Part shown: positions 4,273 through 42,097 of the stretch, piece after piece
Layout: each line of letters opens with the position of its first letter
Numbering within the stretch: the first letter of the stretch is position 1
NCBI GenBank assembly: GCA_945877805.1
Contig: CAMCSM010000013.1
Location: 1-43,525, forward strand
Source: Methylacidiphilum caldifontis
Lineage (GTDB): Bacteria; Verrucomicrobiota; Verrucomicrobiia; Methylacidiphilales; CAMAQI01
Length of the DNA stretch: 43,525 nucleotides
Direction: 5' to 3'
The notes under the pieces: generated by a model
What the model was told of the DNA's origin: nothing
Seen by the model: only the letters and a program-made list of their open reading frames with translations
Database searches by the model: none
Program-made: the position numbers and the translations under genes

Positions 4273-5370
4273 TTATACTGTCAGCTTTCGATAGACTCCT
4301 GCCAATCGATTAAAATGCTCTCCCCACGTAAACCGTTTCACGTTCTCAAACCCTTTTTGAATTAGATTATTTCTGAGTTCTGGCGAATCCATCACTCGCT
4401 CAATTTGTGTGGCAAGCTCCTCAGGATTTAACGGATCATGATATAAAACAGAATCCCCACCGACCTCCTTCAAACTTGTCGCCGATGAGATCACACACGG
4501 TAACCCACAAACCTGTGCCTCCAATACAGGAAGTCCCTGTCCCTCATAAAGTGACGGAAAGCAGAGAAGATCGCAGAGTGAATAAATTCTGTGTAACTCC
4601 TCAAATGCCGGTTCTTTGATTTCCACAACAGAATCTTGAAGCGATTCCGAAATGATCCAATTCGCCAGTTCACCCGGGAAGATCATTTCTCCTGCCTTAA
4701 CGAGAGAGACTTTTCTTCCTTTTTCTTTAAGACCCTTAAACGCTTTTAAAAGGGTCGGAATATTTTTGCGAGAAATATTGGATCCCACATGAAGCAACAA
4801 GAAATCCCCCTGTTTTTTTCTCTCTTGCAAGACCCTCAGCATCGGAAATCTTTCGAACTCTTGATCAGAAACTTCTATTTTTTCATAGCGAGAATCAATT
4901 CCAAGCGGGTTGACAGTGATCTGAGATGGATCAATTTTAAAAAATTCCTGCAAATCGTTCGATGTCGATTCCGATAAGGCAAAGAAGTGTTGTGCTCTCA
5001 AGATCCCTCGCACTCTCGACTTCCACCACAAATACTGTCCCCACGACAAAGACCTATTCCGCCATTCCGCCAAGTCGTGGCAGCTCACCACCGTGGGAAC
5101 ATCACTGCGGCATAAGTGACCATAACTATGATCGAGGATATGAAGAATCGAATTTTTTCCTGAAGACTTGAAAAGGGTCTCGATTCGATGAGGGTACAAA
5201 ACATGCCGATCCCATAGGCGCGATCGCCCAGGATCGGGAAGTGCCGTTTTGAAATTAAATTGTCCCGCTAGGTTTGGGATATGCTTTTGAAATTCTCTCC
5301 AGTAGTAGTCCATACTCCACCATCTTTCCGAAGGAAGATCAGGAGCCAAAATCACCGATTGACGTTTCAT
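4273..5370 (-). CDS. Glycosyltransferase family 4 protein
   Basis: 365 residues of a typical GT4 (GT-B) enzyme. Visible signatures are HFFALSESTSNDLQEFF with ITVNPLGID at the domain boundary, LLHVGSNISRKNIPTLLKAF at the start of the donor domain, and the E-x7-E region SLYEGQGLPVLEAQVCGLP (E276 and E284) followed by EVGGDSVLYHDPLNPEELA. It would transfer a sugar from a nucleotide donor to a growing surface glycan on the cytoplasmic side. Its ATG lies three bases after the stop of the upstream methyltransferase, with a purine-rich AAGAAGAGATAAGG just ahead, consistent with translational coupling. Confidence 0.87.
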   Translation of the reverse strand: MKRQSVILAPDLPSERWWSMDYYWREFQKHIPNLAGQFNFKTALPDPGRSRLWDRHVLYPHRIETLFKSSGKNSILHILDHSYGHLCRSDVPTVVSCHDLAEWRNRSLSWGQYLWWKSRVRGILRAQHFFALSESTSNDLQEFFKIDPSQITVNPLGIDSRYEKIEVSDQEFERFPMLRVLQERKKQGDFLLLHVGSNISRKNIPTLLKAFKGLKEKGRKVSLVKAGEMIFPGELANWIISESLQDSVVEIKEPAFEELHRIYSLCDLLCFPSLYEGQGLPVLEAQVCGLPCVISSATSLKEVGGDSVLYHDPLNPEELATQIERVMDSPELRNNLIQKGFENVKRFTWGEHFNRLAGVYRKLTV

Positions 5371-40227: not shown

Positions 40228-40880
40228 AAGTTTCGGCAAAGCCCGAAACAAAAAACCAGAATTTCTGTTTTCTGCGAAGCAAATTTCATAAACCGGAGTC
40301 GGAATGATTTTTTTCGATCTAAGAACGACTCGTCCATTAAATGAGCCTTGCTTCCGGCTCGTCCGGTTTATGAAAAGGATCGCGAAAACGATAAGCTAAA
40401 AATCGCTGGAAGTGAAAATAATTTTGTAGGGATGCAGGAAAAATACCGGATTCACCACAGAGTAAACGGAGGAAATACTGGTTTTATAAGAAAACGAGAA
40501 ATGCGATTTATTTTGTTAAGTTTGTTTTGAAAAAAAAGAACAGAATTTTCATCTGTTACCCTCCGTTTACCCTTCCATGAGAAGGCAAGTCAAGAAGTAA
40601 GAGAAAGAGATTTTCGGGATTGTATTTTAGAGATCAAGATCACGCTTCCATTCGCACTCTTTTATGGAACCTTCAAGGGTTCCGGTGCATGATAAAATCC
40701 GGTCTTGAGCTGCTATCTGCGGTCCGCCTTTAAAAAGGACAGGGTATACGACGCAGTCATCAAAATCGGGATCTTTCTCTAAAATCTTATCCGTTAAAAA
40801 TCTTTCTTTTTTTCTCCTCGAGCTTTCTTTCCTTGATTCTTTTGTTTTGTTTCGGGCTTTGCTTAATTAAAAGCCTGCCT
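40228..40880. repeat. Intergenic region with several inverted repeats next to the IS110 element
   Basis: No convincing gene. GCAAAGCCCGAAACAAAA (40236-40253) recurs inverted at 40845-40862, an exact 18-bp pair framing the region. A perfect 14-bp inverted pair, TTTCATAAACCGGA (40284-40297) and TCCGGTTTATGAAA (40362-40375), encloses a further CGGAA/TTCCG step. GGAACC-TTCAAG-GGTTCC is a hairpin near 40664-40682. ATTGTATTTTAG (40619-40630) and CTATCTGCGGT (40713-40723) both recur on the other side of the transposase. Confidence 0.7.
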
Positions 40881-41906
40881 TTAAACCTTCTGTAATTTCA
40901 AGGCTTGATAGGGTTCTTCGCTTTTCCAGAGAGCATGTAAAAGCACTGCAAGTTTTCGAGCGACTGCGATCACCGCTTTTTTCTTAGCCGCTCGTCCTCC
41001 CCGTTGGATAAGTTTGAGTCCAAAGCGCTTGAGATCACTGTCGGGGCCGAACTTTCCCAAGATATATTGAGCGCAGTTGACCAAGAGCCGGCGTAACATC
41101 GAGTTTCCCATTTTACTAATCCCTAGTTTTTTATCAATCTCCCCCGATTGATCTCTCTTGGGTTTTAGTCCCAAATACGCCCCTACTTCTCGACTGCTTT
41201 TAAACTTCCCAGGCTCCTCCAAAATCAAAACATACGCCAGTGAGGTGATCGGTCCCACGCCAGGCACTGCTTTGAGCTTTTTGATCTCAGGGTAATTCTT
41301 TTCCTGCGCCAAAATCATCTGATCATACTTTTTTATCTCTTCACTCATTGATCCAATCGATTTGAGCACTCCTGTTAAACACCCTTTAAGCTCCTCCGGT
41401 AACTCAATTTGACCACTAAAACACTTCGTACTCGTCTCTTTGAGTCGATATCCAAAGTTCTTCGCAATCGATCTCAACGTGTTCACAAGGTCAGCTCGGG
41501 CGTTGACTAAGCTCTCCCGTCCCTTGATCCACCCCAAATCCAATCGATGGGCTCTTTTTCTTATCTGCACAGGCTTTAAGAGCTTGCGATCCGCACGAGC
41601 TAATCGAGCCAATTGCTCCGCATCTCTCGAATCACTCTTGTTGCAACTCTTCCAAATCGATTTCACCTCGCGACTATTGGCCACGATCCATTTCACTCCC
41701 TCTTGCTCACAAAGATCTACAATCCATCCCGTGTGTACCCCGGTTTCGATCGCCAACTCGCTCCCTTTGTGCTTCCTTAAAAAAACTCTCATCGATTCAG
41801 GATCATTACTCACACTTCCTCGCTCTTCCACCTCTCCATCTACTCTTAAGACGCAGTACCAATTTTTTTTGTCTCCCAAATCCATTCCAATCATGCTATT
41901 GTTCAT
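40881..41906 (-). CDS. IS110-family transposase
   Basis: 341 residues. The N-terminal DEDD RuvC-like domain has MIGMDLGDKKNW (D9), ELAIETGVHTGWIVDLCEQ and NKSDSRDAEQLARLARAD. The C-terminal Tnp_20 domain has LKAVPGVGPITSLAYVLILE, VGAYLGLKPKRDQSGE and LGISKMGNSMLRRLLVNCAQ. It is intact with no internal stop. ATG 41904-41906 has GGAGG eight bases ahead, and this ribosome-binding site lies in a strong stem. IS110 transposases work with a bridge RNA made from the noncoding end of the element. Confidence 0.93.
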   Translation of the reverse strand: MNNSMIGMDLGDKKNWYCVLRVDGEVEERGSVSNDPESMRVFLRKHKGSELAIETGVHTGWIVDLCEQEGVKWIVANSREVKSIWKSCNKSDSRDAEQLARLARADRKLLKPVQIRKRAHRLDLGWIKGRESLVNARADLVNTLRSIAKNFGYRLKETSTKCFSGQIELPEELKGCLTGVLKSIGSMSEEIKKYDQMILAQEKNYPEIKKLKAVPGVGPITSLAYVLILEEPGKFKSSREVGAYLGLKPKRDQSGEIDKKLGISKMGNSMLRRLLVNCAQYILGKFGPDSDLKRFGLKLIQRGGRAAKKKAVIAVARKLAVLLHALWKSEEPYQALKLQKV

Positions 41907-41908
41907 TC

Positions 41909-41993
41909 GCTAACCTCCGTTGGGGTGACACGTTGAAGTATCACCGGTTTGTTTTTTTCCACCCGGACTTTAACATATTCCAACGAGGTTAGC
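41909..41993 (-). ncRNA. Structured leader upstream of the IS110 transposase, possible bridge RNA or part of it
   Basis: GCTAACCTCCGTTGG (41909-41923) pairs with CCAACGAGGTTAGC (41980-41993), a 14-pair stem with one bulge. Inside, GGTGACAC (41924-41931) and GTATCACC (41938-41945) form an eight-pair hairpin. The transposase Shine-Dalgarno (GGAGG on the minus strand) is within the closing stem. IS110 bridge RNAs are known to come from this 5' noncoding end, but the 85-nt fold is shorter than known bridge RNAs (about 170 nt), so the full RNA may extend further. Confidence 0.5.
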
Positions 41994-42097
41994 CTTCTCA
42001 TTCTATCTGCGGTAAAAATTGTATTTTAGTTGTCATAAAGTTGATCCTCATGCGACGGGACGGGGTCTTGATCTTTTTCCCAATACCTGAAATGAGT

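What the first reader, a model, noticed from the sequence alone, without database searches (positions are those of the whole stretch)
41907..42030. IS110 leader folds over the transposase ribosome-binding site
The closing stem (41909-41923 with 41980-41993) contains the GGAGG that serves the transposase ATG, so RNA structure could limit transposase translation. The same leader is where IS110 bridge RNAs arise, so one transcript may switch between guide RNA and mRNA.
Basis: partly seen in the sequence, partly recalled or inferred. Interest (0 to 1): 0.55.

Follow-up and report, generated by a model that had tools for sequence, protein, structure and literature searches.

The report
Hairpin guarding a jumping-gene start codon
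The message of this jumping gene seems to begin with an RNA hairpin that ends almost at the start codon and recurs in related elements, probably holding enzyme production down, while the element's guide RNA is predicted at its opposite end and not in this hairpin.

Summary
The hairpin is real, on the minus strand (transposase 41906-40881): -37.2 kcal/mol, z -3.57, GGAGG inside the stem. It is not the bridge-RNA source. The element is of the IS1111 group: 10-bp subterminal inverted repeats, about 310 nt of 3' non-coding sequence, insertion into one of at least 39 genomic repeats. A covariance model from 22 relatives, window excluded, matches the window once, at 40771-40623 in the 3' region (E 1.5e-16); flanking target halves match the elements' own 3' regions, not leaders. 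The guide/mRNA switch in the leader is rejected. The hairpin itself recurs: in 30 of 33 leaders of this clade it starts in the left inverted repeat and ends 0-3 nt before ATG, with arms that vary but stay complementary (0 of 100,000 permutations). The predicted circle-junction promoter would start the message there; it beats shuffles for the window, and in 13 of 26 elements. GGAGG occurs in 1 of 33, so start-codon-proximal structure is what is conserved. Best reading: a 5'-terminal hairpin damping transposase translation, as in IS200. Function is inferred.

The parts
40572..42006 (-). whole IS1111-type element, about 1435 bp, the only full copy found in this genome; LE at 42006, RE (with one core AG) at 40572
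   Evidence: one repeat copy split by it (repeat query 4-102 at 40465-40573 and 100-150 at 42006-42054); own-genome search
40881..41906 (-). transposase, 341 aa, DEDD_Tnp_IS110 + Transposase_20, motif GLKPKRDQSG
41909..41993 (-). leader hairpin (closing stem 41993-41980 with 41923-41909; inner hairpin inside)
   Evidence: same place in 29 of 32 relatives; arm tests
41914..41918 (-). GGAGG in the 3' arm, possible Shine-Dalgarno; present in 1 of 33 leaders
41992..42001 (-). left subterminal inverted repeat ATGAGAAGGC; its last bases start the hairpin's 5' arm
40577..40586 (-). right subterminal inverted repeat GCCTTCTCAT
42000..42005 (-). -10-like TAGAAT of the predicted circle-junction promoter
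   Evidence: 0 of 300 shuffles as good
40588..40593 (-). -35-like TTGACT of the predicted circle-junction promoter (17-bp spacer once the ends join)
40623..40771 (-). bridge RNA / seekRNA region in the 3' non-coding region
   Evidence: covariance model of 22 relatives without the window: 57.4 bits, E 1.5e-16 (rough calibration), only match at E up to 10 on either strand of the window
40742..40749 (-). candidate right-target guide GTATACCC (complementary to GGGTAAAC at the right junction with one mismatch)
   Evidence: read; set-wide test of right flanks
40713..40723 (-). left-target guide ACCGCAGATAG, identical to 42013-42003 at the left junction
   Evidence: 9 of 20,000 shuffles of the region reach 11
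40692..40698 (-). candidate right-donor guide ATTTTAT (pairs with LE ATAGAAT, one G-U)
   Evidence: read; not tested statistically
40645..40651 (-). candidate left-donor guide ATGGAAG, identical to RE 40578-40572; lies in a motif conserved in the 22 aligned relatives
42007..42054 (-). left half of the interrupted genomic repeat (target), core AG at 42008-42007
40465..40571 (-). right half of the interrupted genomic repeat (target), starting GGTAAACGGAGG

Best explanation
This is the left end of an IS1111-group element. When the element excises as a circle, its joined ends make a promoter (TTGACT-17-TAGAAT) whose start point falls on the first paired base of the leader hairpin (predicted, not measured). 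The transposase mRNA would then begin with a hairpin whose 5' arm starts in the left inverted repeat and whose 3' arm ends next to the start codon, so ribosome loading is limited. The guide (bridge/seek) RNA comes from the 3' non-coding region, possibly from the same long transcript. The hairpin would keep transposase low while guide RNA is still made, much as IS200 keeps its transposase low with an RBS-burying leader hairpin. Supported by data here: the fold, complementary variation across relatives, the 3' location of the bridge RNA. Inferred: start point, translational effect, purpose.
For: Fold: (z -3.57); 27 of 32 correctly cut leaders with z <= -2. Position: 30 of 33 leaders have the last paired base 0-3 nt before ATG; with the 5' start fixed at AAGG, 28 of 33 real leaders make a closing stem of at least 4 pairs ending there, against 196 of 1980 shuffled leaders. 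Complementary variation: 17 representatives, own arms 6.76 of 8 pairs, swapped 5.53, 0 of 100,000 permutations; register fixed by two pairs (15 of 17 representatives have one), positions 3-8 own 4.2 against 2.94, 3 of 50,000, and positions 5-8 2.53 against 1.83, 170 of 50,000 (29 of 33 leaders: 4 of 50,000). Junction promoter of the window: 0 of 300 shuffles as good. Opening cost of the landing zone 20.2 kcal/mol, against a median of 7.4 for 29 raw ORFs of the window, the transposase among them. Bridge RNA location.
Against: No transcript, probing or reporter data. The junction promoter beats 95% of shuffles in only 13 of 26 elements with both ends; L053 and most of the TCGACA group do not. 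Opening costs of the clade (median 11.9, 33 leaders) are no higher than those of seven other IS110-family leaders (9.9-14.8). If the 5' end is left free, a hairpin ending near ATG is commonplace (8 of 8 outgroup leaders, 79 of 96 shuffles), so the case rests on the fixed start and on complementarity. Three of 33 leaders pair 8-9 nt from ATG and five of 32 have weak z. The strand test is weak: 7 G-U against 3 A-C. In 15 of 26 elements at least the first five hairpin positions lie within the run shared by the two ends, so part of the complementarity may be kept for DNA reasons.
Confidence: 0.62

Rival explanations
1. The leader is the bridge-RNA gene and one transcript switches between guide RNA and mRNA there.
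For: Bridge RNAs of the IS110 group do come from the left end (PMC11208160, passages).
Against: The bridge-RNA model matches only the 3' region of the window; left flanks share on average 4.2 contiguous nt with their leader against 8.5 with their own 3' region, n = 26; five relatives have leaders of only 25-27 nt from AAGG to ATG, too short for a bridge RNA.
Confidence: 0.02
2. The inverted repeat is kept for DNA reasons: a transposase- or host-protein-binding site that extends the left inverted repeat.
For: The 5' arm begins inside the inverted repeat (identity run of LE with RE 9-13 in 24 of 26 elements); the G-U excess is small.
Against: Arms vary in sequence but keep complementarity at positions 5-8, mostly beyond the inverted repeat; leader length varies from 25 to 90 nt; the 3' arm is tied to the ATG (30 of 33); five GNRA-type loops on the sense strand and none of the antisense equivalent.
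Confidence: 0.15
3. The hairpin mainly protects the 5' end of the junction transcript from RNase and does not act on translation.
For: The predicted start point lies at or within three bases of the hairpin start, the arrangement of 5'-terminal protective stem-loops (recalled, ompA-type).
Against: Does not explain why the 3' arm ends at the ATG; a protective hairpin could sit further upstream.
Confidence: 0.15
4. The hairpin is a second transposase-binding RNA through which the protein represses its own synthesis.
For: Transposases of this family bind structured RNA from the element (PMC11187229, sections read).
Against: No complementarity between leader and bridge-RNA region beyond swapped controls (5326 of 20,000 permutations as low, n = 27), though this does not test protein binding; leader sequence and loops vary, unusual for a protein-recognised hairpin.
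Confidence: 0.06

Closest known systems
IS1111-group insertion sequences with 3' seekRNA/bridge RNA (ISEc11, ISKpn4, ISPa11; PMC11187229, PMC11208160)
   Same: DEDD transposase of 341 aa with GL-P----SG, subterminal inverted repeats, long 3' non-coding region, two-loop guide RNA with top-strand guide 5' of bottom-strand guide, promoter motifs at the joined ends
   Different: a leader hairpin between the left repeat and the ATG with complementary arm changes across relatives; not mentioned in the parts of either paper that I read or in the term searches; whether other IS1111 elements have it is open (two outgroup elements, L121 and L123, can form one starting at their own repeat)
IS200 tnpA leader (stem-loop sequestering the RBS; PMC12594629, passages only)
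   Same: inverted repeat in the transposase leader burying the start region
   Different: unrelated transposase (recalled); here the hairpin begins in the element's own inverted repeat and at the predicted junction-promoter start, and 32 of 33 members lack an SD motif
IS10/IS50 fold-back control of read-through transcripts (recalled; the IS10 Hfq paper PMC5006887 seen in a search listing only)
   Same: structure formed by an end of the element blocks transposase translation
   Different: in IS10/IS50 the block applies to transcripts from outside (recalled); here the predicted junction transcript carries the hairpin too

Membership tests
IS1111 group | subterminal inverted repeats of 7-17 bp | tested here: met
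   ATGAGAAGGC / GCCTTCTCAT, run of 10; range from PMC11208160 passage
IS1111 group | longer non-coding region downstream of tnp, carrying the guide RNA | tested here: met
   about 100 nt upstream against about 310 nt downstream; bridge-RNA model match at 40771-40623
IS1111 group | guide complementary to the top strand lies 5' of the guide complementary to the bottom strand | tested here: met
   GTATACCC at 40749-40742 (one mismatch) lies 5' of ACCGCAGATAG at 40723-40713; set-wide flank tests; order given
IS1111 group | DEDD + Transposase_20 protein of 330-350 aa with GL-P----S(t)G | tested here: met
   definition
IS1111 group | circular intermediate with junction promoter | not testable with these tools
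   promoter sequence predicted; circle not observed
IS110 group (sensu IS621) | guide RNA in the left end, upstream of tnp | tested here: not met
   no model match in the leader; left-flank match in the window's leader 4 nt against 11 nt in its 3' region
IS200-type leader control | stem-loop in the transposase leader that includes the RBS | tested here: met
   window only: GGAGG inside the stem; in the 32 relatives no SD motif
IS200-type leader control | translation shown to be inhibited by the stem | not testable with these tools
   needs reporter fusions

The most novel reading that the evidence does not exclude
In this clade of IS1111-type elements the left inverted repeat does double duty: as DNA it marks the end and, joined to the right end, makes the promoter; as RNA it is the 5' arm of a hairpin at the very start of the message. 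Excision therefore switches on a transcript that is built to be poorly translated but rich in guide RNA, setting the guide-to-transposase ratio and limiting runaway transposition. The layout may reach beyond this clade (two outgroup elements can form it from their own repeats).
Probability: 0.27. Interest if true: 0.68.

Novelty: new variant of a known kind. Interest (0 to 1): 0.5.

Why it matters
How bridge-RNA recombinases keep their own dose low is little described in the parts of the two founding papers that I saw; here a leader structure with complementary changes across a clade makes it testable. It also corrects a likely mistake: a hairpin upstream of an IS110-family gene need not be a bridge RNA. 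For users of such recombinases, the native leader may depress expression and be worth replacing.

Tried and rejected
Leader as bridge RNA: rejected. Rfam at gathering thresholds: no family in the window. Clean empty site in the two same-genus genomes: G002 carries another gene (MATE-type by my reading of the protein; no family search) between the same neighbours, and no match to the neighbouring U32 gene was found in G001, so the empty site rests on the split repeat instead. Leader-to-bridge-RNA pairing: own -31.8, swapped -31.4 kcal/mol, 5326 of 20,000 permutations as low, n = 27, rejected. A second promoter giving leaderless mRNA (AT-rich -10-like stretch shortly before ATG): no consistent -35, mostly low scores, no shuffle control run; not excluded. 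Strand test by G-U against A-C: 7 against 3, with 158 Watson-Crick and 24 other mismatches, 32 of 33 leaders; inconclusive. Free-start hairpin scan: uninformative, since 79 of 96 shuffled outgroup leaders have one too. MAFFT alignment of leaders (A2) aligns the arms badly, so pairs were counted by register in scripts. Viral contigs: two scans, nothing. Plasmids: only transposases below 60% identity; one search was capped at 5000 records.

Rows dropped: L060 (transposase in pieces, a second inverted-repeat copy instead of a leader; z 0.43); L063 was cut wrongly and recut; L061 showed no inverted repeat; L092, L101 and L103 gave no whole leader (L092's contig begins inside it); identical copies and repeats of the same locus were counted once. 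Loci L064-L078 (distant or partial matches) were not examined for leaders, except a motif scan of L069. In one search a bridge-RNA region was extracted from 24 of 33 elements (window included), 9 gave none; one search aligned 22 of the 23 relatives (L095 left out); the window was left out on purpose. One search used 7 of the 8 outgroup loci (L120 has no annotated gene).

The odds of the novel case went from 0.30 to 0.27 because the promoter is beyond chance in only half of the elements.

Full report
What is there. The transposase gene lies on the minus strand, 41906-40881: 341 aa, DEDD_Tnp_IS110 and Transposase_20. Its leader, read 5' to 3' on the minus strand, contains a closing stem 41993-41980 with 41923-41909 that includes GGAGG (41918-41914) seven bases before the ATG. 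The fold is -37.2 kcal/mol against a shuffle mean of -24.0 (z -3.57, 1 of 200 as good).

What the element is. A repeat fetched from this genome has 39 matches at E <= 1e-3, a lower bound since 40 of 81 candidates were scored. Two of the rows are the halves of one copy, repeat query 4-102 at 40465-40573 and 100-150 at 42006-42054, and the transposase lies between them. The element therefore runs from about 42006 to 40572, about 1435 bp, with target halves ...ACCGCAG and GGTAAACGG.... Its ends carry ATGAGAAGGC and GCCTTCTCAT, a 10-bp subterminal inverted repeat. About 100 nt lie upstream of the gene and about 310 nt downstream. Subterminal repeats, a downstream non-coding region and a 330-350 aa transposase with GL-P----SG are the IS1111 features given in PMC11187229 (abstract and four result sections read: features, seekRNA, ISEc21, targets); alignment. 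PMC11208160 (passages) places most bridge RNAs in the right end of IS1111 and in the left end of IS110 elements.

Relatives. The same-order search found no close relative (7 of 62 genomes with a match, the window's own included; the others at 33% identity or less). The class-wide search (384 genomes) gave relatives at 40-46% identity over most of the protein, and two family searches in the same class (18 of 260 and 10 of 252 genomes at E <= 1e-60) gave more. Thirty-two relatives and the window have a complete leader. G252 has five copies; the four fetched with both ends share the left flank TTCAACAAGATTAG and have similar right flanks, which locates the ends.

Where the guide RNA is. For 26 elements the 20 bases left of the inverted repeat share on average 8.5 contiguous bases with their own 3' region, 6.2 with other elements' 3' regions and 4.2 with their own leader; 0 of 20,000 permutations reach the observed sum. 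Right flanks (20 elements) give 6.25 against 5.3, 0 of 20,000. Not every element fits: L053, L111, L112 and L115 share only 5-6 bases, the background level, and in L055 the shared stretch is elsewhere. The window's match is ACCGCAGATAG, 11 of 11 (9 of 20,000 shuffles). A covariance model built from 22 relatives without the window (17 pairs, 10 with changes on both sides) has one match in the window at E up to 10: 40771-40623, minus strand, 57.4 bits, E 1.5e-16 with a rough calibration. The leader is not the guide RNA.

The leader hairpin. In most relatives the leader folds the same way: the 5' arm starts at the AAGGC of the left inverted repeat and the 3' arm ends at the ATG. Of 32 correctly cut leaders, 27 have z <= -2; L089, L091, L094, L096 and L098 do not. 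In 30 of 33 the last paired base is 0-3 nt from the ATG; in L094, L096 and L097 it is 8-9 nt. With the start fixed at AAGG, 28 of 33 make a closing stem of at least four pairs ending within 3 nt of ATG, against 196 of 1980 dinucleotide-shuffled leaders. Arm sequences differ: GGCAGTGA/TCACTGCC, GGCGTAG/CTACGCC, GGCGGG/CCCGCC, GGTA/TACC, GCTAACC/GGTTAGC. With 17 representatives, own arms pair at 6.76 of 8 positions, swapped arms at 5.53; 0 of 100,000 permutations reach the observed total. With the register fixed by two pairs only (found in 15 of 17 representatives and 29 of 33 leaders), positions 3-8 give 4.2 against 2.94 of 6 (3 of 50,000; representatives) and positions 5-8, mostly beyond the inverted repeat, 2.53 against 1.83 of 4 (170 of 50,000; 4 of 50,000 for the 29). 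The arms vary while staying complementary.

Link to the junction promoter. With the ends joined, 26 elements can be scored: 17 have TTGAC at -35, 7 have TCGACA, 2 neither (weights recalled). The window scores TTGACT-17-TAGAAT, 0 of 300 shuffles as good, and the predicted start is the second base of GGCTAACC, the first paired base of the hairpin. Over the set, 13 of 26 score within the best 5% of their shuffles; L053 and the TCGACA group do not, so the promoter is a strong prediction for the window and some relatives only. PMC11187229 states that joined ends create a promoter, active in a few tested cases, presumed to transcribe tnp and also the non-coding region (passage). The junction message would thus begin with the hairpin.

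What it probably does. A hairpin ending at the start codon should slow initiation. The window's landing zone costs 20.2 kcal/mol to open, against a median of 7.4 for 29 raw ORFs of the window (the transposase among them); the median of the 33 leaders is 11.9. Seven other IS110-family leaders cost 9.9-14.8, so cost alone is not distinctive. Those seven all have an SD motif, while only the window among the 33 does. In this window SD motifs precede 4 of 29 raw ORFs (8 of 29 if any ATG of the first 30 codons is allowed) against 5 of 29 at a control position, and in 38 related loci 12 of 117 (16) against 17 (some ORFs spurious). The window's GGAGG may therefore matter less than the stem. The closest documented mechanism is IS200, whose leader stem-loop sequesters the ribosome-binding site (PMC12594629, passages). 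RNA rather than DNA is favoured by the tie to the ATG, complementarity without sequence conservation, and five GNRA-type loops on the sense strand with no antisense equivalent; the G-U against A-C count (7 to 3) is too small to decide.

Beyond the clade. With a free 5' end every one of 8 outgroup leaders can form a hairpin ending near ATG, but so do 79 of 96 shuffles, so this says nothing. Looking back at the structures, L121 and L123 form one that starts at their own left repeat and ends 0-2 nt before ATG; L120 does not. That is a lead, not a test.

Print status. Searches for IS110/IS1111 or transposase leaders with hairpin, ribosome-binding site, stem-loop, start codon or mRNA structure listed no paper that, by title and abstract start, describes this leader hairpin. 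In PMC11187229 the terms hairpin and stem-loop do not occur. In PMC11208160 'ribosome binding' and 'Shine' do not occur; its passages on hairpins, stem-loops and recombinase expression concern the bridge RNA and assays, with a remark that the non-coding ends have been suggested to regulate recombinase expression and that small RNAs may do so in ISPpu9. The library is open-licence only; the ISEc11 junction-promoter paper and the IS200 2015 paper were not held.

Verdict. Observation confirmed; the translation idea is strengthened and made general within a clade; the bridge-RNA idea is refuted for this leader and relocated to the 3' end.

Noticed in passing
genome G000, 39 matched places; window 40465-40573 and 42006-42054: Interspersed repeat family of about 150 bp with inverted GGAGG/CCTCC arms, 39 matches at E <= 1e-3; the element sits in one copy.
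   Followed up: partly
41911-41922 (- strand): The leader's 3' arm shares the 12-mer CAACGGAGGTTA with five fetched loci of that repeat family, some of which overlap; chance or capture, the window being the only leader with GGAGG.
   Followed up: partly
L085 (G082), right end: Two right ends 171 bp apart: a partial tandem duplication of the right end with the donor-guide part of the 3' region.
   Followed up: no
L050, downstream of the transposase: The segment GAGATGACTGCGGTG occurs twice in the 3' region, as if the 5' part of the guide RNA were duplicated.
   Followed up: no
leaders of the clade, shortly before ATG: A recurring AT-rich stretch (GATAAT, TATAAT, GATACACT) before the 3' arm; -10-like but without a consistent -35.
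   Followed up: partly
L121 and L123 (plasmid outgroups), leaders: IS110-family elements outside the clade can form a hairpin from their own left repeat to 0-2 nt before ATG.
   Followed up: partly
L048 (G002:C235) 1523-2356: In a same-genus genome the interval between the aminopeptidase and U32 peptidase genes holds another gene (MATE-type by my reading, no family search) instead of the repeat and element.
   Followed up: no
L060 (G313): Left end with a second inverted-repeat copy directly before a transposase start codon and the transposase in pieces.
   Followed up: no
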